64,000 nt of DNA from Ktedonobacter racemifer DSM 44963 (GTDB lineage Bacteria > Chloroflexota > Ktedonobacteria > Ktedonobacterales > Ktedonobacteraceae). Positions 9,154 to 43,292 of this stretch are shown here, in pieces (the stretch's first letter is position 1; every line of letters starts with the position of its first letter). Where the stretch lies: positions 1-64,000 of the forward strand of contig NZ_ADVG01000006.1 of assembly GCF_000178855.1 (NCBI RefSeq). Direction: 5' to 3'. The translations under genes and the position numbers were made by a program. The notes beneath the pieces were generated by a model. It had not been told where the DNA came from. It ran no database searches and was given only the letters and a program-made list of their open reading frames with translations.

Positions 9154-12100
9154 CTAGGCCTGTTCTACACTGTGCACCAAGAGTCCCTCCAGGATCTCCC
9201 CGATAAGCTGCTCAAATGTCACGCCCTTGAGGAATGTTGTCACTGCGATGGTCACGTCCAGGTCCGCGCGGATGCGGTTCCTCAGTTCCACGGACATGAG
9301 CGAATCGATGCCCAGCCGGTTGAGCGGTTGGTACGCATCAAGATTGAGTGAGGCGTGCCCCAGAACGCTCGCAATGTGAGCGTTGAGATACTGGCTCAGC
9401 GCCTGGTGGCGTGCCTCTTCGTCCAGCGTTACCAGCATGTCCCCTGTCAGGCGTGGCTCTGCTGCTCCTGCCTTCTCCTGTGCCCTCGTTTCCTCCACCA
9501 GATCCGCAAAGAGCGAGGAACTGGTCAAATTTGGATAGAATTGGCTCCATTTTGGTAGATGAAACGACATGACTCCAACTTGTGGTGGACTCTGCCGCAA
9601 GAGTTCACCCAGGATAGCCAGGCCTTCCTTCGGCTTCATACTGGCAAAGCCGCGCACATCCAGGCGTTCGCCGCGGTCTCCCTTCATCGCCTGTCCAACC
9701 TCGCCCCAGCGCCCCCAGTTGATGCAGAGGGCAGGTAACCCTTGCTGCCTGCGGTAGAACGCCAACATATCCATAAAGGCATTGGCTGCTGCGTAGTTGC
9801 CCTGGCCGGGTGAGCCGATCAGTGAGGCTGCCGACGAGAAGAGCACAAAGTAGTCCAGGGGATCATTCAGCGTCAGGCGATGCAGATTCCATGCTCCATC
9901 GACCTTGGGGGGCATGACACCCTGGAAACGCTCACGATCCAATTGAAGCAGGGTACTGTCATCCAGCACAACGGCTGAGTGGAAGATTCCGCGTAAGGGA
10001 GGCATCCTGCGCCGTATTTCATCCAGAGCAAGAGCGAGTTGCTCTTCCTGGGAAACATCGGCCAACATGAGATGCACCGTCGCTCCCGTGTCGCGCATCA
10101 TGTGCAGCGTGGCCTGAGCCTCCTCTGAGGGACCTCGGCGGCCCATGAGGACGAGGGAGCGCGCGCCTTGTTCTATCATCCATTGAGCTGTGCGTAACCC
10201 AACCCCGCCCAGGCCACCGGTAATCAAGTAGGTGCCATCCTGACGGAATAAGGTTTCGGATGATTCCTGCTCATTTGGTAAGGTGTGATGAGCAAGCCGG
10301 GCAGCATAGCGCCTCTTTCCGCGTAGAGCCACTTCATCGGCTTCATCGTTGGAGGATATTTCCTTGCAAAGGGCCTTGATGCTCTCCTCTGAAGGCGTTG
10401 GATCGAGATCAATCAAGGTGGCGTGCAAATCCTGATGCTCGTAGACGATGACGCGACCCAGGCCCCACAACGGAGCCTGCGACAGCGCAGTAGTCCCTTC
10501 TTGCTCCTCAATAGCATGGACGCCGCTGGTCACGAGATAGAGTCGCGGAGTGGTTTCCTGCTTTGTTGCTGTCAATGCCTGGAGCAAGTGGAGCGTGCCG
10601 ATACTCACCAACTCCTGATCCTCAAACAATGCGTGCACCGTACTCGCTTCGTTGACTGGTTGTGTCAGCAGACTCCACAAGTAGACGATGCCATCGATGG
10701 TTTGTCCTCCCTGGTACAACTCACTAAAGAGGTGATGAAACTCCTCAGGAGACGTAGGATTCAGTTCGTAATGCTGTACCTGGACCTGTTTATAGGTGTT
10801 GCCTGGGGTAACAACGATACACTCAGCGCCATTTGCCTGCAAATATTCAACCAGTTTCTGAGCAGGACCCTCGTGCGCACCAAAGATGAGCCACCGTTTG
10901 CGCGACTCTTGCACCTGCTGTTCGGTGGAAACCTGTTGCTCCCACTGGATACTGTATAAGAGCTGGTTGAGGCGTTGGCGCATTAATCCCTGTGTGTTAT
11001 CCTCAAGCGATTGCAAGCGGAAACCAAGCACCTCCAGGAGCACGTGCCCTTCGTCGTCAAGCAGAATGATATCACCATCGATGGTGCTCGTATTGTCTGA
11101 GCGGAGTATCGCGTGGCTCCAGAGTCTTCCTGTACCCTCTGGCTGCTGATAGAGTCTCACCTGTTTTACCACGACGGGTACATAGCTGTCCTCATTCTCT
11201 TCCGGCAGAAAGGGAATAATGCCTTGCAGAATGGCATCCATCAGCGCGGGGTGGACCTGGTAGCCGGACCGCTCATCTATGACTTCCTGAGGAACGGCGA
11301 TCTGCGCCATCACCTCGCCTGATCTCCGCCAGATGTGGGTGACGCCCTGGAAGCGTGGGCCGTGTTGAATGCCGCGCGCCCGGATGCCATCGTAGAACGC
11401 AGGCGCTTCCATCGTCAGGGTCCATTGGTCTGGCACCTGCTCAGGGAGGAGATGAGGATGCGCTTCATTCGTCAGGAATTCTTCCACCCTGCGCACCATT
11501 GCCGTCGCGTGATGGGTCCAGGAGACGGCTTGCTTGTCCTGCTCAGCCTGGGTACTATAAAACTGCAATACCCAGCTTCCTTCCTCTGCTTCGTGGGGTG
11601 TCAGGGTAACTTGCAAGGTTTGCCTGATACCTTGGGGGAAGAAGAGCACTTTTTTAAGTTGAAGATCTTCGATGCAAAAGTGACGGGCGCCAAAAATATC
11701 AGTTGCGGCGGCCAGGGCTAATTCGATATAGGCTGCTCCGGCAAGGACCGGCATGTCATGAACACGGTGTTCCTCCAGATAGGGGAACAGTTCCGCGTCG
11801 ATCTCCGTCGTCCAGAGATACGTCTGCTTCTGGAGCGCCAGTGGCGTGCCGACATTGAGGATGGGATGGGCGATGGTTCCGTCGCTCCTCCATGTGGAAA
11901 TGGCACGGGATTGTGAGCGATCGCCGCCGTCGTTCCAGTGGCGTTGCCGTTGCCAGGGGTAGGTGGGCAAGGACACCCGTCGTCCTCCATCGGGATAGAG
12001 GCGAGACCACTCCACTTCATAACCATGAGCGTACAGCGTGCCCAGCGTGGTCAGCAAAGCGTTGCGCCCTTCATCACGCCGCAGCGAGGCCAGGGCCATC

Positions 12101-14236
12101 GCAGGCTTATCCGATTGTTCAATGGTTTGCCTGATCGCGCCGACCAGGATCGGATGGGGACTCATCTCCATAAAGATATCGAAGCCCTCCTCCAGTAATT
12201 CCTGCGTCGCATTGAGGAAGAGGACCGGTTTACGGAGGTTATCCACCCAATACTGCGCGGTTAATTCTCCCCCTTCTATATATGTGCCATTGACCGTCGA
12301 AAACATCGGCACACTGGCCCGACGCGGCTGAACACGCTGCATCAGGCTGAGCAGATCCTCGCGCAGCAGGTCCATCTGCGGACTATGCGAGGCAAAATCC
12401 ACTCTGACGAGGCGGCCAAAGATGCCCTTCTCCTCAAGGACAGCGAGAATTTCTTTCACGGCTTCAGCGTCACCCGAGAGGACCGTCGAGTTTGGGCTAT
12501 TGCTGACAGCTACCGATACACGCTCCTCGTACTTGTTATCTTTGACGAGCGCGGTGGCTTGCTCCAGCGAGAGCTCTACTGCTGCCATCGCCCCTTTACC
12601 TCGTTGGCGCAGTGCCAGTTTGCTGCGAGAGCAAATAATCCAGGCCGCGTCTTCCAAACTGAGCGCTCCAGCGATATAGGCTGCCGCTGTTTCACCCATG
12701 GAGTGCCCTACCACCGCGTCTGGCTCGACCCCCCAGGAGCGCCAGAGCGCCGCCAAGGCAATCTCAATCGCGAAGAGTGTCGGCTGGATCACATCGATTT
12801 CATCCAGGCGTGCTGAGTCCTCATTGGTTTGCAAGAGGTCGAGTAGCGACCAGTCTACGTAGTTGCGCATGACCCGATCACAGTCCTCAATAGCAGCGCG
12901 GAATGCAGGCTCCTGGGCCAGTAAATCGCGTCCCATGCCCAGCCACTGTGATCCCTGACCAGGAAAGATCCAGGCAATTTTGTGCTTTTTGGTTGCGATG
13001 TGTCGACCACGAAGCAACTCGACGCTTGCCTCCCCTTGTCCGAAGGCGCTGAGTTTTCTGTGTAGTTCGGATTTTGAAGAACTCGTGACGGCCAGGCGCT
13101 CCTCGCGGGGCAGCCGGCCCAGGCTTGCCGTGTAACAGATATCGCGCAGGGTTTGCGCTTTGTATTCCTCCTGCTCCAGGTGCGCTACATACCGCTGAGT
13201 CAGTTCCTGAAGGGCTTTGTCAGTCTGCGCGGACAAGGGCAGCAGATAGGTGGTGGAGGGTTCCTCGTCCGGTTCCGTCTCCGCAGCCACAGCATGTGGG
13301 GCTTCTTCGAGGATGACATAGGAGTTTGTCCCGGCGATACCGTAAGAGCATACCGCCGCACGATGTGGGGTACCGACGGAGTGTGGCCAGGGCGTGAGCG
13401 CTGTAGGAATGGTCAGCGCATATCTCTCCCACGGGATGGCGGGGCTAGGCGTATGGAAATGCAGGTTTCCTGGGATCATACCGTACCGGAGGCTGAGTGC
13501 CGCCTTCATCAAGCCAGTGACGCCTGCTGCTCCCTCGGTATGGCCGATGTTCGTCTTCACCGAACCCACGAGCAAGGCATGTTCTGCAGGACGATTGTTG
13601 CAGAGGACCTCTCCCAATGTCTCAATTTCGACGGGATCACCTGCTTTGGTCCCTGGGCCGTGTGCCTCGACATAGTCAATAGTCAGCGGGTCAACGCTGG
13701 CGTTTTCTAGCGCCTTCTTTAACCCGGCTTGCTGCCCCTGGGTGCTGGGAGCCATAAAGGAATCACAATGACCGTCATTGTTGGAGGCGCTGCCGCGAAT
13801 AATGGCATAGATCTGATCGCCATCGGTTTGTGCTTGTGAAAGGAGCTTGAGGATGACCACGCCTGCGCCTTCGCTACGCACATAGCCATCGGCAGCCGCA
13901 TCGTAGGTCTTACAATGCCCATCGGGGGCCATCATTTTGCCCTGCGAGAAACCAATGGTGTGATCGGGATTCAGGATGACATTCACTCCGCCCGCAACGG
14001 CGATGCGACAGGCTCCAGCGCGCAGATTGTGTACCGCCTGGTCGACGGCGATCAGCGAAGACGAACAGGCGGCATCGATCGCGAAACTGGTCCCCATGAG
14101 ATCTTGCGTATACGAAATGCGACCGGCAGCGCCACTACGCGCGCTGCCGGTCGTTCCGTACACATCCAGACTTGCGGCATTCTTAAATTGCCGGTCCCAG
14201 AAATCTCCGGTCAGGATGCCGATAAAGGTACCGTTT
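9154..14236 (-). pseudogene. Type I polyketide synthase module, 5' truncated (KS'-AT-DH-KR-ACP)
   Basis: About 1,690 residues of one module, missing its start. From the break: remaining KS with the active-site DAACSSS and the two His motifs EAHGPGTKAGD and NIGHTEGAAG; AT (GQGSQWLGMGRDL, GHSMGE; specificity motif FASH, nearer the methylmalonyl-type YASH than HAFH, weak evidence); DH (His kept in EEHRVHDMPVLAG, but Gly and Pro of HxxxGxxxxP replaced); KR (TGGLGGVGLRTAQWM); ACP (LGIDSLMSVELRN). No ER or thioesterase. In frame, KS homology continues past 14163 (FIGILTGDFWDRQ) to about 14229 and then meets a stop at 14236-14238 in foreign sequence, so at least 100 residues of KS and any upstream modules are lost. 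A stand-alone product is unlikely to work. Confidence 0.9.
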
Positions 14237-14398: not shown

Positions 14399-14980
14399 AT
14401 GAAACTAGGCTATATCCGCGTCAGTCGTGACAAGCAAACGACCGCACTGCAAGAAGATGCTATGAAGCGCGAGCAGTGCGATAGGACATTTACAGATAAG
14501 ATGAGTGGGAAGCGGTTCGACCGCCCGGAATTCTTGCGCATGCTCGACATTGCGCGGCCAGGGGACGTGATTGTGGTGTGGAGACTTGATAGGCTGGGAC
14601 GTTCTCTTAAAGAGCTGATTGAGACCGTGAATGTGCTATCAGAGCGCGGGGTTGAGTTAAAGAGCCTAAAAGAGAATATCGATACCTCAACACCAACAGG
14701 CAAGTTGATGTTTCATATCATTGGAGCGTTGGCAGAGTTCGAGAGGGATATCATCAGCGAGAGGACCCAGGCAGGACTTGAGGCAGCCAGAGCCAGAGGT
14801 CGCCAGGGAGGAAGACCAAAGGCCAAGATACGCCCCGACCAGCTAGAGCGAGCGCGCAAGCTTCACGCCGCGAGGCAGAACACCGTTGCCGAGATTATGG
14901 CCCTAACCGGATTTAAAAGCCGGGCTACTTATTATAAGTACGTGGTAGATAGTGCCAAATCACAAGACCCACAGGTGTGA
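14399..14980 (+). CDS. Serine resolvase/invertase (Tn3/Hin type)
   Basis: A 193-residue small serine recombinase. Catalytic domain at 1-140: GYIRVSRDKQTTALQ with the nucleophilic Ser, RLDRLGRSLKEL, and LMFHIIGALAEFERDIISERT, followed by a C-terminal HTH (NTVAEIMALTGFKSRATYYKYV) after GRQGGRPK. Length and order are canonical. ATG at 14399 has AAGGAG upstream. A res-like array lies immediately upstream. It probably resolves multimers or a transposition cointegrate of the element; its stop codon overlaps the first TGTGAC dyad of the next locus. Confidence 0.95.
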   Translation: MKLGYIRVSRDKQTTALQEDAMKREQCDRTFTDKMSGKRFDRPEFLRMLDIARPGDVIVVWRLDRLGRSLKELIETVNVLSERGVELKSLKENIDTSTPTGKLMFHIIGALAEFERDIISERTQAGLEAARARGRQGGRPKAKIRPDQLERARKLHAARQNTVAEIMALTGFKSRATYYKYVVDSAKSQDPQV

Positions 14981-25688: not shown

Positions 25689-26015
25689 CTATGCCGCATT
25701 CTCTTGCTTCTGCTGTTTGCTCCCCTTTGGGGTATATCGGCGAGGCGTACGGTCTTTTGCCCCAGCAGGCCGCCCTGGCTTGCCATGCGCCATTTTTTCA
25801 GCGTAGGCATCAATCTCTTCCTTGGGATACGCCAGCAACTTTGGGTTGAGTTGCCGAGCCGGGAACTTCTTATATTGCACCGCAAGCACGCGCACATACT
25901 TGGGCGTCGTTTTAAGAACCGAAGCCGCCTGATCCGAGGTATAGTACAGTACCCCATCAATACTCAGGGGCACCATATCGAGAGGCTTTACTCCTTCCTG
26001 GTCATCATGTGCCAT
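25689..26015 (-). CDS. Excisionase/MerR-type HTH protein
   Basis: A 108-residue DNA-binding protein: LYYTSDQAASVLKTTPKYVRVLAVQYKKFPARQLNPKLLAYPKEEIDAYAEK is a helix-turn-helix of the excisionase/MerR-like (HTH_17) type with its wing, followed by a basic AT-hook-like tail (GKPGRPAGAKDRTPRR). ATG at 26015 with AGGAGT. It is transcribed from a promoter carrying the same 16-bp dyad as three other promoters of the window, so it is a candidate for the regulator of that set, autoregulated. That link is inference. Confidence 0.72.
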   Translation of the reverse strand: MAHDDQEGVKPLDMVPLSIDGVLYYTSDQAASVLKTTPKYVRVLAVQYKKFPARQLNPKLLAYPKEEIDAYAEKMAHGKPGRPAGAKDRTPRRYTPKGSKQQKQENAA

Positions 26016-26076
26016 ATCACTCACTACTCCTTTCACCTGTAGAGAAACCACAGACAGAGCATGCCCGTGTCTTCTT

Positions 26077-26105
26077 AGTATAATGTTTCGGGACATTAAA
26101 AACAA
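26077..26105 (-). promoter_or_regulatory. Dyad-in-spacer promoter, copy 1 (minus strand)
   Basis: On the minus strand TTGTTT (26105-26100), 17-bp spacer, TATACT (26082-26077). The spacer is filled by the dyad at 26082-26097 (plus strand AATGTTTCGGGACATT). Same geometry as at 27435, 31710 and 35952. Confidence 0.82.
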
Positions 26106-26719: not shown

Positions 26720-27390
26720 TACCACACCTGCGCAGGGTGTTCCGCGCTTTCCCTTCCCAACCCATCAGCCGCCCGCGCTCCCTATGGCTTCGCCACGCTC
26801 TCCTCTCCGGTCTCCGCCGATGCTTAAACATGGTCACACCTCGACATTTGCCTCCGGCGGGACCTAGCGCCCCACAGCTCCGCCATCCTTGCCCCCGGAC
26901 CCAGCCACCACCAACGCGCCGCAGCTAGAAGCGTTACACCTCGACGTAACGAAACCAGCCAGCCACCAGCGACCGACCGCGAACCAGGAGCGCCAGGCAT
27001 CGACACGCCGCACAGCCGCAGCCGGACCACCTGAACGCCAGCCAGAGCAGCCGGACCCACCCAGGCAGAAGGCGACGAGACACGCCCCCAGCGAGCCAGC
27101 CGGACCACCGCCAGCCGAGCGAACCCACCAGCCGAGCGAACCCACCAGCCAGCCGGACCCGCCCAGGCAGAAGGCGACACCGAACGCGAGCGAACCCCCG
27201 CAGCCAGGAGCAGCCGCAGCCGGACCACCTGAACGCCAGCAGCCGCAGCCGGACCACCTGAACGCCAGCAGCCGCAGACCTCGACGCACGACCCCAGCCA
27301 GCGAGCCAGCGAGCCAGCGAGCCAGGAGCGCCCCGCATCATGACCAGCCACGACCACGCGAAGCCGCACGCAGAGCCACGCGAGCCGCCA
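26720..27390. other. GC-rich, repeat-laden region without a supported gene
   Basis: Very GC-rich DNA with short direct repeats: a roughly 30-bp unit (GCAGCCGCAGCCGGACCACC and following bases) at about 27011, 27210 and 27240, a CCAGGCAGAAGGCGAC unit at about 27061 and 27164, and AGCGAGCC runs near 27300. Open frames exist on both strands but encode only low-complexity Pro/Ala/Arg or Gly/Trp/Cys. It runs straight into the promoter at 27435. Confidence 0.6.
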
Positions 27391-27392
27391 AA

Positions 27393-27463
27393 AGTACTAG
27401 AAAATAATGTCCCAGGGTAGTACTTTTTCGTCACTTGAAAATAATGTCTCAGGACATTATAAT
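27393..27463 (+). promoter_or_regulatory. Dyad-in-spacer promoter, copy 2, with upstream AGTACT pair
   Basis: TTGAAA (27435-27440), 17-bp spacer, TATAAT (27458-27463). The dyad AATGTCTCAGGACATT (27443-27458) fills the spacer. Upstream lie AGTACT at 27393-27398 and again at 27419-27424, with an AATGTCCC half dyad between them. It drives the 27.5-31.2 kb gene run. Confidence 0.9.
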
Positions 27464-27480
27464 ATAAGAGTAAGAGATGA

Positions 27481-27557
27481 GGAGCGCGGAGCGGGAGGGA
27501 CGCTTGAGACCCGGACCCCCGAACCGCCTAGCAGACAGCCGAGAGGAGACCCGAACT
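27481..27557 (+). promoter_or_regulatory. Structured leader L1 (GACGCTTGAGACCCGG loop)
   Basis: Loop core at 27499-27514. The stem is CGG-AG-CGGG with CCCG-AA-CCG (about 27487-27495 and 27518-27526), with a 2x2 internal loop. A conserved trailer AGCAGACAGC and a GAGAGGAG ribosome site lead to the ATG at 27558. Confidence 0.75.
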
Positions 27558-28133
27558 ATGGCCCTTATCACTTTTGAGCACGTAGCAGCCCACCTCGACG
27601 GCTTGACCGAGGCCCAGCTCGACAAGTGCCACCGCACCATCGACGAGGCCACCGGGCAAGTATTTTATCAGGTGGAGAGTTCAGAGTACGAGCAGAACGA
27701 GCAAATGTACAAAGTTACGTACGACGAGGAGACCGGCTTCCATTGCACCTGCAAGAGCGGTCAGTGGGGTTTCGCTAATGTGAAACATTGGAGCGGCGTT
27801 GACTGGCATGTTCGCGCCAGCGTGAAGCGCGAGCTTGAGTTTCGCGCCGAGGCTCAGACCCGCCAGGATGCAGACGCACGCGAGCAGGAAGCACGCCGCG
27901 AGGAGGCCGCGAAGAAGGAGCAGGAGCGCCAGCAGGAGCAGGCAGCGCCAGCAGACGAGCCGACCCGCGAGCAAGCTTTAGAGCGGTTCAGGGACGCCCA
28001 CCGCATCGACGGACGCCGCCCGACCCGCGAAGAGGCCGAGCGCCTTTTGTTCAAGGTTTCACCCCGCCCGACCCGCGAAGAGGCCGAGCGCGACATGCAG
28101 CGTTATCAAGCCCGCCCATTCCGAATCATGTAA
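27558..28133 (+). CDS. SWIM-like zinc-finger protein
   Basis: A 191-residue protein. Residues about 45-90 (MYKVTYDEETGFHCTCKSGQWGFANVKHWSGVDWHVRASVKRE) resemble a SWIM domain (CxCx(n)CxH): the CxC and final His are present but the third Cys is Trp. A long charged helix rich in Glu, Gln and Arg (about 95-140) and two copies of a PTREEAER motif (about 153 and 172) follow. ATG at 27558 with GAGAGGAG; the upstream in-frame extension translates leader L1 and is rejected. First gene behind the dyad promoter. SWIM domains bind DNA or proteins; the role here is unknown. Confidence 0.7.
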   Translation: MALITFEHVAAHLDGLTEAQLDKCHRTIDEATGQVFYQVESSEYEQNEQMYKVTYDEETGFHCTCKSGQWGFANVKHWSGVDWHVRASVKRELEFRAEAQTRQDADAREQEARREEAAKKEQERQQEQAAPADEPTREQALERFRDAHRIDGRRPTREEAERLLFKVSPRPTREEAERDMQRYQARPFRIM

Positions 28134-28228
28134 GATCCAAAGCCAGCGCGCCACCTGCCTAACCTTCCACAGCCGACAGGAGGCGCGCCCAGACCCCGAC
28201 CGAAGCCGGAGTACAAGGAGTATAGCAT

Positions 28229-28579
28229 ATGCGGGAGCGCAGGAAGCAACGCCCGGACCTATACCCGCCAGGGTGGAAGCGCATCACCCAGAAGTGCAGG
28301 GAGCGCGCCGGGAATTGTTGCGAGCATTGCGGCATAGCGCAATACACGCTAGCTCAGGGAAGGAGCGGCACGCCGTACTTGATTTATTTGCAAGCCGCCC
28401 ATGTACACCGGCTTGACCCGCACTTTCTACTTATAGAGCCAATCGGAGGCCAGCGCATACGCGCACTATGCCCAACTTGCCACGGTCGCTATGATGCCCA
28501 CTGGAGACGCGAGGAGCAACGCCAGGAGGCCCAGGAGGCCCAGGAGGCCCAGGAAGCAGCAGCGAACCCGGCAGCCTAA
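28229..28579 (+). CDS. HNH-type nuclease-like protein
   Basis: A 116-residue protein with CEHCG near residue 31, LQAAHVHRLDP near 55 and LCPTCHGRYDAHW near 80: two Cys pairs and the His motif of an HNH/zinc nuclease fold. A C-terminal tail repeats QEA four times (from a CAGGAGGCC tandem repeat) and looks disordered. ATG at 28229 with AAGGAG. Unlike most neighbours it lacks the L-type leader; its upstream region has a GCGCGCC/GGCGCGC hairpin (about 28147-28188). HNH proteins of this size may be nicking or restriction enzymes. Confidence 0.72.
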   Translation: MRERRKQRPDLYPPGWKRITQKCRERAGNCCEHCGIAQYTLAQGRSGTPYLIYLQAAHVHRLDPHFLLIEPIGGQRIRALCPTCHGRYDAHWRREEQRQEAQEAQEAQEAAANPAA

Positions 28580-28590
28580 CGAATAACCAG

Positions 28591-28674
28591 GAGGAGGAGC
28601 GGAGGGACGCTTGAGACCCGGCCCCCGCCCCACCTCGACAGCAGGCAGCAGAGCCACCAGAAGGAGGAGACCAG
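28591..28674 (+). promoter_or_regulatory. Structured leader L2
   Basis: Loop core GACGCTTGAGACCCGG at 28606-28621. The outer stem GAGGAGGAGCGG with CCGCCCCACCTC has 10 of 12 pairs. Trailer CAGCAGGCAGCAGAG, then AAGGAGGAG before the ATG at 28675. Confidence 0.78.
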
Positions 28675-29079
28675 ATGAACCACTTTTTAGCAGAGCTTAT
28701 AGCACTTCTTATCGGCATGTTTGACCGAGACGCCAAAGGCATTGTAATTCGCCACTGCGCCGCCATTCCACGTTGGAACCCCCACTACCAGCCACACGCG
28801 GAGCAGGAGGACCGCTATTATGTGGAAATCGAGTTGAACTATCCAGCCAATGAGGCAGGAGAGGCGGCTTATGAGCATATCCGCAGCATGGAGCATATGC
28901 TTGAGTACCTGAAAGGCATAGGAGTTACAGAGGAGAAGATCAAGGAGCGCGGCCCCTACATTCAGCAATATTGCCACATGTTCGACGATCCGAACGAGGA
29001 AGACAGCGGAGCGCCCACCAACCCCGCCTATATAGATGGTTGCTTCTCTGTAGAGCGCGAATGGTACGAGGAAGACTAG
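28675..29079 (+). CDS. Protein of unknown function (leader-associated)
   Basis: A 134-residue acidic protein (MNHFLAELIALLIGMFDRDAKGIVIRHCAAIPRWNP; YYVEIELNYPANEAGEAAYEHIRSMEHMLEYLKGIGV). The start is hydrophobic but too short for a clear membrane anchor. ATG at 28675 with AAGGAGGAG. Its neighbours in the leader-bearing run include antirestriction-type proteins; no function can be given from sequence. Confidence 0.6.
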   Translation: MNHFLAELIALLIGMFDRDAKGIVIRHCAAIPRWNPHYQPHAEQEDRYYVEIELNYPANEAGEAAYEHIRSMEHMLEYLKGIGVTEEKIKERGPYIQQYCHMFDDPNEEDSGAPTNPAYIDGCFSVEREWYEED

Positions 29080-29107
29080 CAGGACCCAGGCAGCACCCAG
29101 ACAGACA

Positions 29108-29198
29108 GAGCGCGGAGCGGAGGGACGCTTGAGACCCGGACCCCCGCCCCGCCTCAGTAGACAGCAGAGACCGCGAGGGCGGGAAAGGAGTTTCACCC
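29108..29198 (+). promoter_or_regulatory. Structured leader L3
   Basis: Loop core at 29124-29139, stem GCGGAGCGG (29112-29120) with CCGCCCCGC (29144-29152), one A-C mismatch. Trailer AGTAGACAGCAGAG, then AAAGGAG before the ATG at 29199. Confidence 0.82.
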
Positions 29199-29447
29199 AT
29201 GGCACACTTTCACTACAAGTACATGCGTAAGATCATCGACGAGCAGGGAACACCCGTCTATGTATCTCCTAATAACTACCTGGACATCACCACAAGCGAG
29301 GCCGTGAATTGCCCAGGCAAGAGCCAGCGCCAGCCATGCGAAGCCGTCGCCACCGTGCAAGACGTGCAGCCCTACGAGCATGCACTAGAGTACCAGTACC
29401 AGTGCCCATCATGCGGCCATAAATTCCACATCTTGTATCACAAGTAA
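29199..29447 (+). CDS. Small zinc-ribbon protein (leader-associated)
   Basis: An 82-residue protein with NCPGKSQRQPC in the middle and QCPSCGHKFHILYHK at the C-terminus, so two Cys pairs able to bind zinc. ATG at 29199 with AAAGGAG at 29185-29191, ahead of TTTCACCC. No family is recognised beyond a zinc ribbon. Confidence 0.62.
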   Translation: MAHFHYKYMRKIIDEQGTPVYVSPNNYLDITTSEAVNCPGKSQRQPCEAVATVQDVQPYEHALEYQYQCPSCGHKFHILYHK

Positions 29448-29470
29448 ACACCCTGGCAGGCAGGCACACA

Positions 29471-29551
29471 GAAGCGGAGCGGAGGAACGCTTGAGACCCG
29501 GACCCCCGCCCCGCCCAGCAGGCTGACAGCAGAGCAGGAGGAGACCCAAGC
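29471..29551 (+). promoter_or_regulatory. Structured leader L4
   Basis: Loop core AACGCTTGAGACCCGG at 29486-29501 (first G changed to A), stem GCGGAGCGG (29474-29482) with CCGCCCCGC (29506-29514). Trailer GACAGCAGAG, then AGGAGGAG before the ATG at 29552. Confidence 0.8.
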
Positions 29552-30067
29552 ATGAAGCAGCACCCATACCTGAAAGCGTTCTCCAACGCGACCACCCCCA
29601 CAAGCGAGCAGATAGACGAGGCACTAGAGGCCGCTTTTTCCATCCATGATGGAGCCTGGACGTATTACAGCACGACCGCGAAGCGCTTTATCTATAGCCC
29701 CGACCTGTTAGAGCTTGCTCAGGTGGAGGCACAGCACCTTTACCCATGCGATGAAACCGCCATAGCGCGTATTTTTATCCCTGCCTATCTGGCAGAGCAT
29801 GCCCAGCAGCAGCAGCAAGAGGTACACGCGCTTATTGACCCCCGAAGCGCGACCGGGAAAGGCGTCATCATTCACCCGAACACGCGCAGAGGAGAAGGAG
29901 GTTATCAGATTACCAGCTTCGACCAGGACGGCCTAATTAGACACATCATCACCCCAGATATTCAGAATGCACTTATGCTAGCCATTAGCCGCCGATGCTA
30001 CAAGCCCGTTGACGCGGAATATGTTGACGCGCTAGCAGCCACATGGACAGCAGGATTAGCCATCTAA
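29552..30067 (+). CDS. Protein of unknown function (leader-associated)
   Basis: A 171-residue protein (MKQHPYLKAFSNATTPTSEQIDEALEAAFSIHDGAWTYYSTTAKRFIY). Mixed alpha/beta, no clear motif, no membrane segment. ATG at 29552 follows AGGAGGAGACCCAAGC. Fourth ORF of the run to carry the conserved leader. Confidence 0.6.
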   Translation: MKQHPYLKAFSNATTPTSEQIDEALEAAFSIHDGAWTYYSTTAKRFIYSPDLLELAQVEAQHLYPCDETAIARIFIPAYLAEHAQQQQQEVHALIDPRSATGKGVIIHPNTRRGEGGYQITSFDQDGLIRHIITPDIQNALMLAISRRCYKPVDAEYVDALAATWTAGLAI

Positions 30068-30070
30068 AGA

Positions 30071-30146
30071 GAGCGCGGAGCGGGAGGGACGCGTGAGACC
30101 CGGCCCCCAGCTCCGCCCAGGCAGACAGCAGAGAGGAGACCAGAGC
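30071..30146 (+). promoter_or_regulatory. Structured leader L5
   Basis: Loop core GACGCGTGAGACCCGG (one change). Stem GCGGAGCGGG (30075-30084) with CCC-A-GCTCCGC (30107-30117): the A-C mismatch of L3 and L4 is here a proper A-T pair. Trailer GGCAGACAGCAGAG, then GAGGAG before the ATG at 30147. Confidence 0.82.
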
Positions 30147-31205
30147 ATGAGCAGCAGCACCGCCACCAGCACGAAGACCAAGAGCCAGCAGAGGCAAAGC
30201 CCCGAAGTGCAAGCCCTGTACCGCCTGCTAGAGACAGACGCACGTGTGCTAGAGATCGACACGGAGGTATACATTTTTCGTGGCAAGGAGCACCACCGCC
30301 TAGCCAAAAATGTGTATAAGGCCCTCTATACAAAAGGGTGGATAGAGCGAAGCCGGGAGTACACCGGCTCAGGAATTACCGAGTTCGCAACCACCCGCCG
30401 AGCACACGAGAGCGCCGACTTTATAGCGCGCATGCGGAGCGGATACAAGCAGCTAGAACTACCCGACATCAGCCGCGAGCCAGCACCCGCCGCCGTACAA
30501 CAGCCGCTTATGCTGGACGACTCACCAGCCGCCGAGGCCCAGGAGGAGCAGGCAGAGCCGAGCGTGCAGCCGGAGCGGGAGGAGCCGAACCAGGAGCGCG
30601 AGCCGGCAGAGCCAGAACACGCCCAGCCGGACCAGGAGGAGGAGCCAGCCGAGGAACCGACCCCAGGACCAGCCGCCGACCAGGACGACCAGGAGCGCGA
30701 GCCGGAGCCAACCAGCACCGCCAGCCAGGAAGCGGAGGAGGAGACCCCGGCAGCACTGGACGCCAACGCCCGCCAGGACCAGGACCAAGACCAGACAGAG
30801 CCGAGCGCCGCCGACCAGGACGCCAGCCAAGAGCGCGAGACCGAGGAGAAGACGAGCGCCCCCGATCCAGAGCAGGAGGAGCAGAGCCAGGAGGAGCAGG
30901 AGCGCGCCGCCGCATGGTTGGAGAGTATCAAGGTAGAGCGATTTAGCGCCCGCAACCGAAAGCGTATCTTGTCACAGCGCCCCAGAGCTACGCATCTTAC
31001 GACCTATAAGGTATGGCTACAGCACGGTTATCAGGTACGCAAAGGAGAGAAGGCCATCAGAATTGCGAAACCCGCCTCCAGTATGGAAGGAGGAGCGCAC
31101 GCACCACAGTTTAGGCCGCAGTGTCTTTTCGACATCAGCCAATGCGACCGAATAGCAGACCAGCCGGAGCCGAGCGGAGGAGAGAAGGCGACCGCAGCCG
31201 CATAG
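30147..31205 (+). CDS. Modular protein with C-terminal ArdC-like domain
   Basis: A 352-residue protein in three parts. Residues about 15-100 are a small helical, perhaps winged-helix, domain (VQALYRLLETDARVLEIDTEVYIFRGKEHHRLAKNVYKALYTKGWIERSREYTGSG). About 120-265 is a disordered acidic Glu/Pro/Gln/Asp tract. About 265-340 (RNRKRILSQRPRATHLTTYKVWLQHGYQVRKGEKAIRI) matches the N-terminal ssDNA-binding part of ArdC-type antirestriction proteins, including the Y-x-VRKGEKAI signature also seen at 32133. ATG at 30147 with GAGGAG. Antirestriction is the known role of ArdC relatives; here it is inferred. Confidence 0.75.
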   Translation: MSSSTATSTKTKSQQRQSPEVQALYRLLETDARVLEIDTEVYIFRGKEHHRLAKNVYKALYTKGWIERSREYTGSGITEFATTRRAHESADFIARMRSGYKQLELPDISREPAPAAVQQPLMLDDSPAAEAQEEQAEPSVQPEREEPNQEREPAEPEHAQPDQEEEPAEEPTPGPAADQDDQEREPEPTSTASQEAEEETPAALDANARQDQDQDQTEPSAADQDASQERETEEKTSAPDPEQEEQSQEEQERAAAWLESIKVERFSARNRKRILSQRPRATHLTTYKVWLQHGYQVRKGEKAIRIAKPASSMEGGAHAPQFRPQCLFDISQCDRIADQPEPSGGEKATAAA

Positions 31206-31242
31206 ACGAAAGCGAGGAGCAGGGAGGCAAGAAGACGAGAGA

Positions 31243-31345
31243 ACGGGCATGCTTGACGCTAAAGCTTGAGACCCGGCCAGCATGCCCGCCCAGCAGACAG
31301 CAGAGCCACCAGAAGGAGACCCCGCCGCGATACACCAAGTATAGC
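31243..31345 (+). promoter_or_regulatory. Structured leader L6, orphaned (no ORF follows)
   Basis: Perfect 10-bp stem CGGGCATGCT (31244-31253) with AGCATGCCCG (31279-31288), of different sequence from L1-L5, around a slightly longer loop ending AAGCTTGAGACCCGG. Trailer CAGCAGACAGCAGAGCCACC matches L2. Downstream, GTATAGCATATCTGCG resembles the start region of the HNH gene (GTATAGCATATGCG) with the ATG disrupted. Probably the remnant of a lost gene. Confidence 0.75.
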
Positions 31346-31393
31346 ATATCTGCGCCAGCATGCGCCCAACTGCGAGCCGATCACCCCCGCGGG

Positions 31394-31461
31394 CGTGACC
31401 AGTCGCCGCCGTCACAGGCGCGCCGCCTGGCCGACAATGTGACACCCAGCTCACAGTCACA
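31394..31461. repeat. TGTGAC dyad pair, locus 7
   Basis: Dyads at 31394-31416 (one base short) and 31438-31461. The spacer is GC-rich with GCCTGGCCG. GC-rich DNA without a supported gene continues to 31665. Confidence 0.8.
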
Positions 31462-31668
31462 CTTGCCCGACCACAAGCCAGAAGCCACGAGTCAGAAGCC
31501 GGACCAGGGAAGGAGCGCGAGCCGGGCGAGTACGCCCGGCCCCTTCGGGGACGCCCAGCCACCGCCGCGCCACCTCGCAGCCGCCGCGCATTACTTGGTC
31601 CCTGCGAGTCACACACCAGCCAGAGCCGGAGGGGACCCGAAGCGGAGCGTGCCCACCCAAAAACAAAA

Positions 31669-31764
31669 GTACTAAAAAATAATGGCCTGGGACAGTACTA
31701 ATATCTCACTTGAAAATAATGCTTCGAGACATTATAATTGAAGTGTACCAGTTGAGTGGTACAC
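31669..31764 (+). promoter_or_regulatory. Dyad-in-spacer promoter, copy 3, with 5'-end hairpin
   Basis: TTGAAA (31710-31715), 17-bp spacer, TATAAT (31733-31738), with dyad AATGCTTCGAGACATT at 31718-31733. AGTACT lies upstream at about 31670 and 31694. The transcript would begin inside or beside the hairpin GTGTACCA (31743-31750) / TGGTACAC (31757-31764). Confidence 0.88.
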
Positions 31765-31800
31765 GGAGCGCGGCGAGGAGCCGCAAGGAAGGATACTATC

Positions 31801-32055
31801 ATGCCAGATGTGACCATTTCTCTCCCTTTTCCCCCAACCGATGACGGAGAAGGCTATATCTTCCCCGCACCTGAATGTTGCCCACAAAGCGCGGCAAGGC
31901 TCGTTGTCGTGTTCAAGGATGAGCACGGCACCGTGAGAGAGCTGATCTACGCACACGACACGAAACACGCCCTTAACATCATCTTTTATCACACCTGCGT
32001 GCTAAAGCATCTCTTTGGCGGAGATATCGAGACCCGCCCCATTAACACCCACTAA
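31801..32055 (+). CDS. Small protein of unknown function
   Basis: An 84-residue protein (MPDVTISLPFPPTDDGEGYIFPAPECCPQSAARLVVVFKDEHGTVRELIYAHDTKHALNI). ATG at 31801 with AAGGAAGGA. First gene after the third dyad promoter. Beta-rich, two adjacent Cys, no family recognised. Confidence 0.6.
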   Translation: MPDVTISLPFPPTDDGEGYIFPAPECCPQSAARLVVVFKDEHGTVRELIYAHDTKHALNIIFYHTCVLKHLFGGDIETRPINTH

Positions 32056-32060
32056 ACGAT

Positions 32061-32132
32061 GTAGCGAGCTTGGGACGCTTGAGACCCGGCCCAAGCTCGC
32101 ACCAGCCAGCAGACAGCAAAGGAGTCTTTACT
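32061..32132 (+). promoter_or_regulatory. Structured leader L7
   Basis: Perfect 10-bp stem GCGAGCTTGG (32064-32073) with CCAAGCTCGC (32091-32100) around the loop GACGCTTGAGACCCGG plus one C. The stem sequence differs fully from L1-L6 while the loop is identical. Trailer CAGCAGACAGC, then AAAGGAG before the ATG at 32133. Confidence 0.88.
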
Positions 32133-32597
32133 ATGACCAAGACCACCAAACGCACCCTCCAGGACGACCCCAAGAAGGCCGAGCAGGCCGCAGCATTCCG
32201 CCAGATGGCGGCCCTGTTAGATGGCGAGTTGAAGGAAGGCAAGCACGAACAACGCCTCAAGAAAGCGCGCCAGGAGTCAACGAGCATTGCCCGGTATAGT
32301 CCACTCAATCAGCTTCTTATTCTTACACAATGCCCCCATGTCACAGTAGTACACGGCTATGTGGAGTGGAAGGACTTGGGGTTTCAGGTACGCAAGGGTG
32401 AGAAGGGCATAGCAATACGTGCCCCACACGCGAAGGCCCCACAGGGCGAGGACGCCGGTACAGTTGGTTTTCATCGTATGTATGTTTTTGATAAATCGCA
32501 GGTTGACCCCATCACCACCGACGAGCAGACCCCGGAGCCAGGAGCAGCACCCCAGGACCAGGACAACCAGCCAGCCCCCGCGCCTGCTGCTGATTAA
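32133..32597 (+). CDS. ArdC-like antirestriction domain protein
   Basis: A 154-residue protein matching the N-terminal domain of ArdC: RYSPLNQLLILTQCPHVTVVHGYVEWKDLGFQVRKGEKGIAIRAP, then GFHRMYVFDKSQ. The C-terminal metallopeptidase half of full ArdC (about 300 residues in total) is missing; the tail is Pro/Gln-rich. ArdC-type proteins bind ssDNA and protect incoming plasmid DNA from restriction. ATG at 32133 with AAAGGAG. It shares the VRKGEKG signature with the gene at 30147. Both are controlled by dyad promoters, which fits early expression after transfer. Confidence 0.82.
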   Translation: MTKTTKRTLQDDPKKAEQAAAFRQMAALLDGELKEGKHEQRLKKARQESTSIARYSPLNQLLILTQCPHVTVVHGYVEWKDLGFQVRKGEKGIAIRAPHAKAPQGEDAGTVGFHRMYVFDKSQVDPITTDEQTPEPGAAPQDQDNQPAPAPAAD

Positions 32598-32616
32598 ATA
32601 GCCCTTACTACGATGT

Positions 32617-32663
32617 GGGCTTGTGTCTCGCTCGCTCGACGCAGCGAGCCGAGGCACAGGCCC
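32617..32663 (+). promoter_or_regulatory. Long leader hairpin before the gene at 32691
   Basis: GGGCTTGTG (32617-32625) with CACAGGCCC (32655-32663) and inner GCTCGCT (32630-32636) with AGCGAGC (32643-32649). The apical loop is CGACGC, sharing GACGC with the L-type leaders. It occupies the place where those leaders stand. Confidence 0.7.
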
Positions 32664-32690
32664 GACGAAGACCACCAAGGAGAATACAGT

Positions 32691-33536
32691 ATGCCAAGCC
32701 AGCAAGAGCGCCCGGAGATGCACAATGTCTATCTGGGGTGGAATGATTACGAAATCAAGGTAGGCCCGGAGGCATATCGGCGCATCATTGAAATAGTGCA
32801 GGCCGAAGCCGTTTGTCGCAAGTGTGGGCAGCGTTACAGCGAAGAGGCCCCCAACGTTGCAGGCTTGCTCTGTCTGCATTGCTTTCTGGCAGAGGATAGA
32901 AAGGGACTCACCTATCAGGGGTTACTTACCCCCGATTTGGGCGAGCAGCCAACCAGGAGACTATACACCCCCTACGATAGCAAAGCCTACTTCTTTTTAG
33001 ACGGTCAGGGCCATGTGTACACCACCAAGGGAGGCCCAGGAGAGAAGGAGGACGTAACCCAAAATGAAAATGCAACCCTCAAATACTGGCACTTTCCCCG
33101 CCCTGTACAAGCCGCCATGTCGAACGGGCAAACCGTTGACGCGAGCCATTGGCATTGGACGATCCACGGCACCCCCCGGACGGATGACGTGGTAATGATC
33201 CAGCATGGAAGCTCATGGCGCAAGGACGAAATACTTTTTATTGTGAAGCGCCACGGGCAAGCTATCCAGATCAGCCGACGCAAGCCGATGCACCGCGCCC
33301 TCCTGGCAGAAGCACGCGCCGAGCTTGAAGGTATGCGCAGAGGCAATATGTACTTAATAGATGGTGAGGAGCAGTATAGCATCTATGAGAGCGATGTATA
33401 CCGATTGGTTGCGCGCAAAGTTGGCGAAATCTTGCAGGAGGCCACGAGTAACACCGAAGCCCCCGACGAGCACAGCGCAGACGAGGAGAGCGAGGAAGCC
33501 AACGAGGAAGCCCACAGCGCAGCAGCGAGCCGCTAG
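32691..33536 (+). CDS. Protein of unknown function with an N-terminal zinc knuckle
   Basis: A 281-residue protein. CRKCGQRY and LCLHCF near residues 42-66 form a zinc ribbon. The middle (YTPYDSKAYFFLDGQGHVYTTKGG, HWHWTIHGTPRTDDVVMIQHGSSWRKDEILFIVKRHGQAIQISRR) is beta-rich, and the tail is acidic. ATG at 32691 with AAGGAG. Follows the ArdC-like gene, probably in one transcript. No family recognised. Confidence 0.65.
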   Translation: MPSQQERPEMHNVYLGWNDYEIKVGPEAYRRIIEIVQAEAVCRKCGQRYSEEAPNVAGLLCLHCFLAEDRKGLTYQGLLTPDLGEQPTRRLYTPYDSKAYFFLDGQGHVYTTKGGPGEKEDVTQNENATLKYWHFPRPVQAAMSNGQTVDASHWHWTIHGTPRTDDVVMIQHGSSWRKDEILFIVKRHGQAIQISRRKPMHRALLAEARAELEGMRRGNMYLIDGEEQYSIYESDVYRLVARKVGEILQEATSNTEAPDEHSADEESEEANEEAHSAAASR

Positions 33537-35921: not shown

Positions 35922-36023
35922 AGTACTATCTTCCCGGTACTATCTCCTCTCTTGAAAATAATGTTTCGAGACATTATAATAAGAAGAGGCCGGGAGCCTG
36001 AGACCGTCAAGACGCAGGCCCCC
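35922..36023 (+). promoter_or_regulatory. Dyad-in-spacer promoter, copy 4, with permuted-loop leader hairpin
   Basis: TTGAAA (35952-35957), 17-bp spacer, TATAAT (35975-35980), dyad AATGTTTCGAGACATT at 35960-35975; AGTACT and GGTACT lie upstream. The leader hairpin GGGAGCCT (35992-35999) / AGGCCCCC (36016-36023) encloses GAGACCGTCAAGACGC, the same loop modules (GACGC and TGAGACC) as L1-L7 but in reverse order. Confidence 0.8.
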
Positions 36024-36073
36024 GCAACGTCAGAGTGAGAGCCACCCCGAACCACGAAGAGGAGTATAACACA

Positions 36074-43138: not shown

Positions 43139-43292
43139 GGTCGATGCTACCAACACCGACCGCCGATGAAAGAGGCCAGTGCTACCAACACCGGCCACTA
43201 ACAGGCGTCTAGAACCGTTTACAGCAACCCTAGACACCCATTACCGCATAATATGCGGTGAGGTGTCACAAGTCAAGGAAAGGATGTCCTTG
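43139..43292 (+). promoter_or_regulatory. Multi-hairpin leader of the GntR-controlled operon
   Basis: Five hairpins in a row: GGTCG/CGACC (43139-43161) and GGCC/GGCC (43174-43196), both with the loop GCTACCAACACC; GTCTAG/CTAGAC (43207-43235); ACCGCAT/ATGCGGT (43243-43259); CAAGGA/TCCTTG (about 43274-43292). The first two have different stems but the same loop. The first start codon follows directly. Confidence 0.65.

What the first reader, a model, noticed from the sequence alone, without database searches (positions are those of the whole stretch)
27481..32132. A covarying leader hairpin with an invariant GACGCTTGAGACCCGG loop precedes six unrelated genes
Seven copies (L1-L7 near 27500, 28606, 29124, 29486, 30089, 31255, 32074). 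The loop and a trailer (CAGCAGACAGCAGAG) hardly change, while stems change completely: GCGGAGCGG/CCGCCCCGC in L3 and L4, GCTCCGC restoring the A-T pair in L5, CGGGCATGCT/AGCATGCCCG in L6, GCGAGCTTGG/CCAAGCTCGC in L7. Compensatory change around a fixed loop is strong evidence for selection on structure. The ORFs behind are unrelated (SWIM-like, zinc ribbon, ArdC-like, unknown). Either a cis-regulatory RNA shared by an operon of early genes, or a boundary element that lets leader-plus-ORF cassettes move, in loose analogy to integron cassettes.
Basis: seen in the sequence. Interest (0 to 1): 0.88.

Follow-up and report, generated by a model that had tools for sequence, protein, structure and literature searches.

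The report
Repeated RNA-like leader hairpin, conjugative plasmid
A probably circular 64.7 kb conjugative plasmid, most likely of a Ktedonobacter-like soil bacterium, carries the same short hairpin-plus-ribosome-site leader seven times, six of them before small genes; it looks like a plasmid-specific RNA control element for tuning those genes together, but it was found on no other genome, so its action is inferred and not shown.

Summary
Seven same-strand copies (27486-32121) consist of a GC-rich stem, an apical loop with invariant core TGAGACCCGG, and a trailer (about CAGCAGACAGCAGAG) running into the ribosome-binding site. Three unrelated stem types occur (L1-L5, L6, L7); 9 of 14 pairs show double changes, and an arm-swap test shows that L6 and L7 arms pair well only with their own partner. 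Corrections: the 16-nt loop is not invariant (L6 has a 6-nt insertion); L6 precedes no ORF; two of the six ORFs share an ArdC-N-like domain; three neighbouring genes lack the leader. The element was found nowhere else (about 400 Chloroflexota genomes by covariance model; about 85,000 species genomes and IMG/VR by pattern; plasmids and phages by blastn). It sits 28-46 nt before each start codon, and 6/7 copies carry a second GAGACC downstream, mostly at the Shine-Dalgarno. Best reading: a modular cis-acting 5'-UTR element for post-transcriptional co-regulation of an operon also under a repeated operator-promoter. The cassette analogy is not supported: no attC-like core, no tyrosine recombinase on the plasmid. 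Closest analogue: SAS/ESAS of cluster K mycobacteriophages. Active strand and trans-acting partner are undetermined.

The parts
27486..27527 (+). L1 hairpin (loop GACGCTTGAGACCCGG at 27499-27514), first in the P1 transcript
27530..27557 (+). L1 trailer and ribosome-binding site; second GAGACC at 27546; ATG of ORF 27558-28133
   Evidence: sequence
28591..28636 (+). L2 hairpin, 11 nt after the stop of ORF 28229-28579
28639..28674 (+). L2 trailer and RBS; second GAGACC at 28667; ORF 28675-29079
29112..29152 (+). L3 hairpin
29155..29198 (+). L3 trailer and RBS; second GAGACC at 29167; ORF 29199-29447 (weak zinc-ribbon hit)
29474..29514 (+). L4 hairpin (loop AACGCTTGAGACCCGG)
29516..29551 (+). L4 trailer and RBS; second GAGACC at 29541; ORF 29552-30067
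30075..30116 (+). L5 hairpin (loop GACGCGTGAGACCCGG; A-T pair restored in the stem)
30118..30146 (+). L5 trailer and RBS; second GAGACC at 30136; ORF 30147-31205 (partial ArdC-N domain)
31244..31288 (+). L6 hairpin with an unrelated stem (CGGGCATGCT/AGCATGCCCG) and a 6-nt loop insertion; no ORF follows
31291..31321 (+). L6 trailer (nearly identical to that of L2) and SD-like GGAGACC without an ORF
   Evidence: sequence
32064..32100 (+). L7 hairpin with a third stem type (GCGAGCTTGGG/CCCAAGCTCGC)
32107..32132 (+). L7 trailer and RBS (no second GAGACC); ORF 32133-32597 (ArdC-N, E 2.5e-9)
27396..27463 (+). P1: promoter TTGAAA-17-TATAAT with palindromic operator (ATAATGTC..GACATTAT) and a second upstream repeat; drives L1 onwards
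31671..31738 (+). P2: second copy of the operator-promoter, before ORF 31801; L7 is internal to this unit

Best explanation
The repeated element is a modular, plasmid-specific 5'-UTR element that acts in RNA. A hairpin displays a fixed loop (core UGAGACCCGG, held on an A.G mismatch and two C-G/G-C pairs) just upstream of each ribosome-binding site. Most likely a trans-acting factor reads the loop, and in most copies also a second GAGACC within or near the Shine-Dalgarno, and so tunes translation or mRNA decay of several genes of one polycistronic unit together. The stem serves only as a scaffold, so its sequence is free to change while pairing is kept. Shown: the repeats, the structure-consistent paired changes and the positions. 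Inferred: that RNA is the active form, that the target is translation or mRNA decay, and that a trans-acting factor exists.
For: Seven copies where 0.8 are expected. Covarying stems around a fixed loop. All copies on the coding strand, 7-38 nt after a stop codon (L2-L7) and 28-46 nt before an ATG. The conserved unit (hairpin, trailer, SD) ends at the start codon while the ORFs differ. L1 lies directly downstream of promoter P1; P1 and P2 are the only promoter-like sites on this strand and no terminator-like site was found, so L2-L6 are probably internal to one transcript. A second GAGACC lies 36-54 nt downstream of the loop copy in 6/7 leaders and in 0/21 other gene upstreams; that spacing is within the 10-63 nt range over which a dimeric repressor such as CsrA bridges two sites on an RNA (PMC7652899).
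Against: No relatives, hence no phylogenetic covariation; only three independent stem types. No G.U pair occurs on the + strand, while several mismatches are A.C, which would be G.U on the other strand; RNA folding energies favour the minus strand in 6/7 copies. The second GAGACC arises in 9-39% of dinucleotide shuffles of the six trailers that have it, and the copies share ancestry, so its significance is modest. No RNA-binding partner was identified. L6 has no ORF.
Confidence: 0.5

Rival explanations
1. mRNA processing or stability element: each hairpin marks or protects the 5' end of a gene-sized mRNA segment after endonucleolytic cleavage, decoupling expression of the genes in one operon.
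For: Intergenic position 7-38 nt after the preceding stop and before the next SD, stable stems with free sequence, no internal promoters or terminators found.
Against: A nuclease that reads a helix would not need a fixed loop and trailer; conservation lies in the loop, not the stem.
Confidence: 0.18
2. Plain duplicated translation-initiation leader without a specific regulator (an insulated ribosome-binding site copied before several genes).
For: L1-L5 are close copies; hairpins just upstream of SDs, with unrelated loops, can also be seen in another related plasmid-like contig (G010:C101).
Against: Does not explain why the loop stays fixed while the stems of L6 and L7 are wholly different.
Confidence: 0.15
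3. DNA or single-stranded-DNA element (protein-binding hairpin or palindrome, for example used in transfer or priming), with the leader position incidental.
For: The plasmid is conjugative; A.C mismatches are read as G.U only on the other strand; DNA folding energies are similar on both strands.
Against: All copies are in the sense orientation and abut an RBS, with a conserved trailer extending into it; no copies elsewhere on the plasmid; no known nic, attC or priming-site signature was recognised.
Confidence: 0.12
4. Recombination boundary of mobile leader-plus-ORF cassettes, in analogy to integron attC.
For: Leader units joined to differing ORFs; L6 lacks an ORF, as after loss of a cassette.
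Against: No tyrosine recombinase on the plasmid; no conserved core sites at the stem base; arms remain cognate between stem types; no relative with another order found.
Confidence: 0.05

Closest known systems
SAS/ESAS start-associated sequences of cluster K mycobacteriophages (PMC3203893; PMC12699233)
   Same: Repeated short element directly upstream of start codons of a subset of non-structural genes, about half with an inverted repeat upstream; almost all in one orientation; role in translation initiation proposed, function unproven.
   Different: There the linear 13-mer and the inverted-repeat arms are conserved and the 4-13 nt spacer varies; here the loop is conserved and the arms vary. 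Sequences unrelated; plasmid, not phage; different phylum.
CsrA/RsmA target leaders, e.g. glgC (PMC7652899)
   Same: [quoted passage not shown] the host genome has eight CsrA-family hits.
   Different: The loop has no GGA (core UGAGACC); GGA occurs in only some copies outside the apical loop; no CsrA hit lies on the plasmid.
Phage coat-protein operator hairpins (MS2/PP7 type; from general knowledge)
   Same: Fixed loop and unpaired purine on a stem whose sequence is largely free, near a start codon.
   Different: One copy per genome there; no coat protein or homologous loop here.
Integron attC sites (from general knowledge)
   Same: Hairpin-forming repeats between small ORFs.
   Different: attC has conserved core sites at the stem base and variable loops, and an integron integrase; the reverse of what is seen here.

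Membership tests
SAS/ESAS (cluster K mycobacteriophages) | 13-bp GGGATAGGAGCCC just before the start codon | tested here: not met
   Trailer and SD read CAGCAGACAGCAGAG..GGAGACC; no such 13-mer.
SAS/ESAS (cluster K mycobacteriophages) | conserved 17-bp inverted-repeat arms with variable spacer | tested here: not met
   Arms differ wholly between L1-5, L6 and L7; the spacer/loop is conserved.
Integron cassettes (attC) | integron or other tyrosine integrase on the element | tested here: not met
   57 PF00589 matches in the genome, none on contig C5.
Integron cassettes (attC) | conserved core sites at the base of the hairpin, variable loop | tested here: not met
   The base is the variable part, the loop is conserved.
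CsrA-regulated leader | GGA in the hairpin loop | tested here: not met
   Loop core CUUGAGACC, no GGA.
CsrA-regulated leader | second site overlapping the SD at bridging distance | tested here: inconclusive
   Second GAGACC 36-54 nt downstream in 6/7, within or next to an SD-like sequence in 5/7; the motif differs from the CsrA site.
Any Rfam 15 family | covariance-model match | tested here: not met
   No match at gathering score in the window; only two weak CRISPR-repeat matches outside the leaders at E>1.
Intrinsic terminator | hairpin followed by a T run | tested here: not met
   0 terminator-like sites in 27300-32700.

The most novel reading that the evidence does not exclude
A conjugative plasmid carries its own translational regulon: an undescribed RNA-binding factor reads the fixed loop UGAGACCCGG and a matching site at the SD of each gene, giving a second, RNA-level switch below the shared operator-promoter for an accessory operon that includes ArdC-like genes.
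Probability: 0.25. Interest if true: 0.7.

Novelty: new variant of a known kind. Interest (0 to 1): 0.5.

Why it matters
A repeated leader whose loop is fixed while three unrelated stems support it is good sequence-only evidence for a structured element on a mobile element of a poorly studied phylum. If it is a translational regulon it would add to the few known cases in which a plasmid coordinates many genes at the RNA level, and it offers a small, testable module (stem swap, loop mutation) that could be moved into laboratory hosts.

Tried and rejected
Relatives of the element: covariance model R1 in 60 relatives, the class and 400 Chloroflexota genomes (two weak hits at E 0.004-0.009, of which the G039 one was read and lacks the loop); pattern scans of genome contigs (13 single matches) and IMG/VR (11 single matches) at about chance level, none with the full structure; blastn on plasmids and phages. 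Protein relatives of leader-borne ORFs: ORF 29552 only in the own genome among 47 class genomes; ORFs 28675, 29552 and 32133 none in IMG/VR. A G005 contig with a homologue of ORF 32691 and elements with related coupling proteins lack the leader. Trans-acting RNA with a perfect 12-nt complement to the loop: none in the genome. A leader after P3 with TGAGACC and GACGC in reversed order looked like a circularly permuted copy, but both motifs arise together in 4.7% of shuffles, so it is not claimed. Internal promoters and terminators: none convincing. Integrase on the plasmid: none. Laying the whole genome in the Python box was not available.

Full report
Setting. The window is bases 1-64000 of a 64,728-bp contig (C5) of a 13.7 Mb genome whose large contigs are several Mb long. 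The contig ends share an exact 18-nt overlap, so it is probably a circular plasmid. It encodes a T4SS coupling protein, a VirB4/TraG-like ATPase, an actin-like segregation protein and restriction-modification genes. The nearest relatives of the coupling protein, 72-75% identical, lie on a multi-Mb contig of the same genome and in two congeners.

Observation. Seven copies of the loop are present, all on the + strand. The alignments of the leaders show an invariant core TGAGACCCGG, a nearly invariant GACGC on its 5' side, and a trailer around CAGCAGACAGCAGAG that runs into the SD. L6 carries six extra bases between GACGC and TTGAGACC. The consensus fold is a stem, then an A.G mismatch, two pairs (C-G, G-C) and a nine-base loop CUUGAGACC. 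Counted on a hand-guided alignment, in which I trimmed short insertions and placed N at one bulge, 90.8% of cells pair and 9 of 14 pairs have double changes; no shuffle or slide comes near. Because that alignment was fitted to the structure, I also ran an arm-swap test without alignment: L6 and L7 5' arms pair far better with their own 3' arm than with any other; within L1-L5 the arms are interchangeable. So the structure is supported by three independent stem types.

Position. Hairpins L2-L7 lie 7-38 nt after the preceding stop codon, and the six with an ORF lie 28-46 nt before the ATG. L1 lies just downstream of a strong promoter P1. P1, P2 and P3 (27396, 31671, 35937) are copies of one operator-promoter with ATAATGtyTCrrGACATTAT in the spacer. 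A contig of another genus in the same family has similar operator-promoters, one of them in front of a gene homologous to the plasmid's HTH_17-like gene at 25689-26015(-); that plasmid gene itself has a matching operator and is a candidate regulator of the unit. The leader-bearing ORFs are 27558, 28675, 29199, 29552, 30147 and 32133; two share an ArdC-N-like domain. ORFs 28229, 31801 and 32691 lack the leader, and L6 has no ORF.

Second site. GAGACC recurs 36-54 nt after the loop copy in six leaders, within or next to an SD-like sequence in five, and in none of 21 other gene upstreams on the plasmid. The trailer composition favours this 6-mer, and the copies are related, so I treat it as suggestive. 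The arrangement resembles dual-site repression by CsrA, but the CsrA motif GGA is absent from the loop. The genome has eight CsrA-family hits, none on the plasmid.

Distribution. No relative was found by covariance model in Chloroflexota genomes, by pattern in about 85,000 species genomes or IMG/VR, or by blastn in plasmids and phages. No Rfam family matches. Elements with related coupling proteins lack it. The element is therefore specific to this plasmid as far as these collections go; metagenomes could not be scanned.

Which nucleic acid. Sense orientation, position and the trailer-SD continuity argue for RNA on the + strand. Against this, no G.U pair occurs on that strand, several A.C mismatches would be G.U on the other, and the minus-strand RNA folds more stably in six of seven copies. 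With perhaps two independent substitutions behind those A.C mismatches this is weak, but it is unresolved.

Cassette idea. There is no attC-like core and no tyrosine recombinase on the plasmid (a serine resolvase is present at 14399-14977), and arms stay cognate across stem types. The duplicated unit is the leader itself, ending at the start codon. I consider this reading unlikely.

Verdict. A real, repeated, structured leader element; most likely a cis-acting RNA module for co-regulation at the translation or mRNA level; closest in layout to the SAS/ESAS elements of cluster K mycobacteriophages, but with the conserved and variable parts exchanged.

Noticed in passing
window 27396-27463, 31671-31738, 35937-35980, about 26065-26097 (-): Operator-promoter repeated three times plus a related one before the HTH_17-like gene 25689-26015(-); a similar arrangement occurs in G014:C37 near 28765-29149. 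Looks like a transcriptional regulon with its own regulator.
   Followed up: partly
window 35988-36026: Hairpin after P3 with TGAGACC and GACGC in reversed order inside a stem resembling that of L1; a possible circularly permuted variant, not convincing by shuffling (4.7%).
   Followed up: partly
window 43143-43206: Two hairpins in the leader upstream of ORF 43504 share the loop GCTACCAACACCG on different stems, the same fixed-loop/variable-stem theme.
   Followed up: no
window 31744-31768 and L116 (G014:C37): The leader after P2 holds hairpin UACCA-GUUGAG-UGGUA; the same stem UACCA/UGGUA with loop AGUGAG follows the operator-promoter in G014.
   Followed up: no
window, many intergenic sites (e.g. 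2553, 22756, 24977, 34097, 36860, 42065, 49487): Arrays of TGTGAC-N12-GTCACA palindromes in intergenic regions, possibly binding sites or REP-like elements.
   Followed up: no
genome G000 (contigs C8 and C10): Eight CsrA-family matches above the curated cut-off in one genome, which seems a large number.
   Followed up: no
window 9154-14163 (-): Polyketide synthase ORF that starts within the ketoacyl synthase domain (matches only profile positions 144-252 of its N-terminal part); it may be truncated or its start misread.
   Followed up: no
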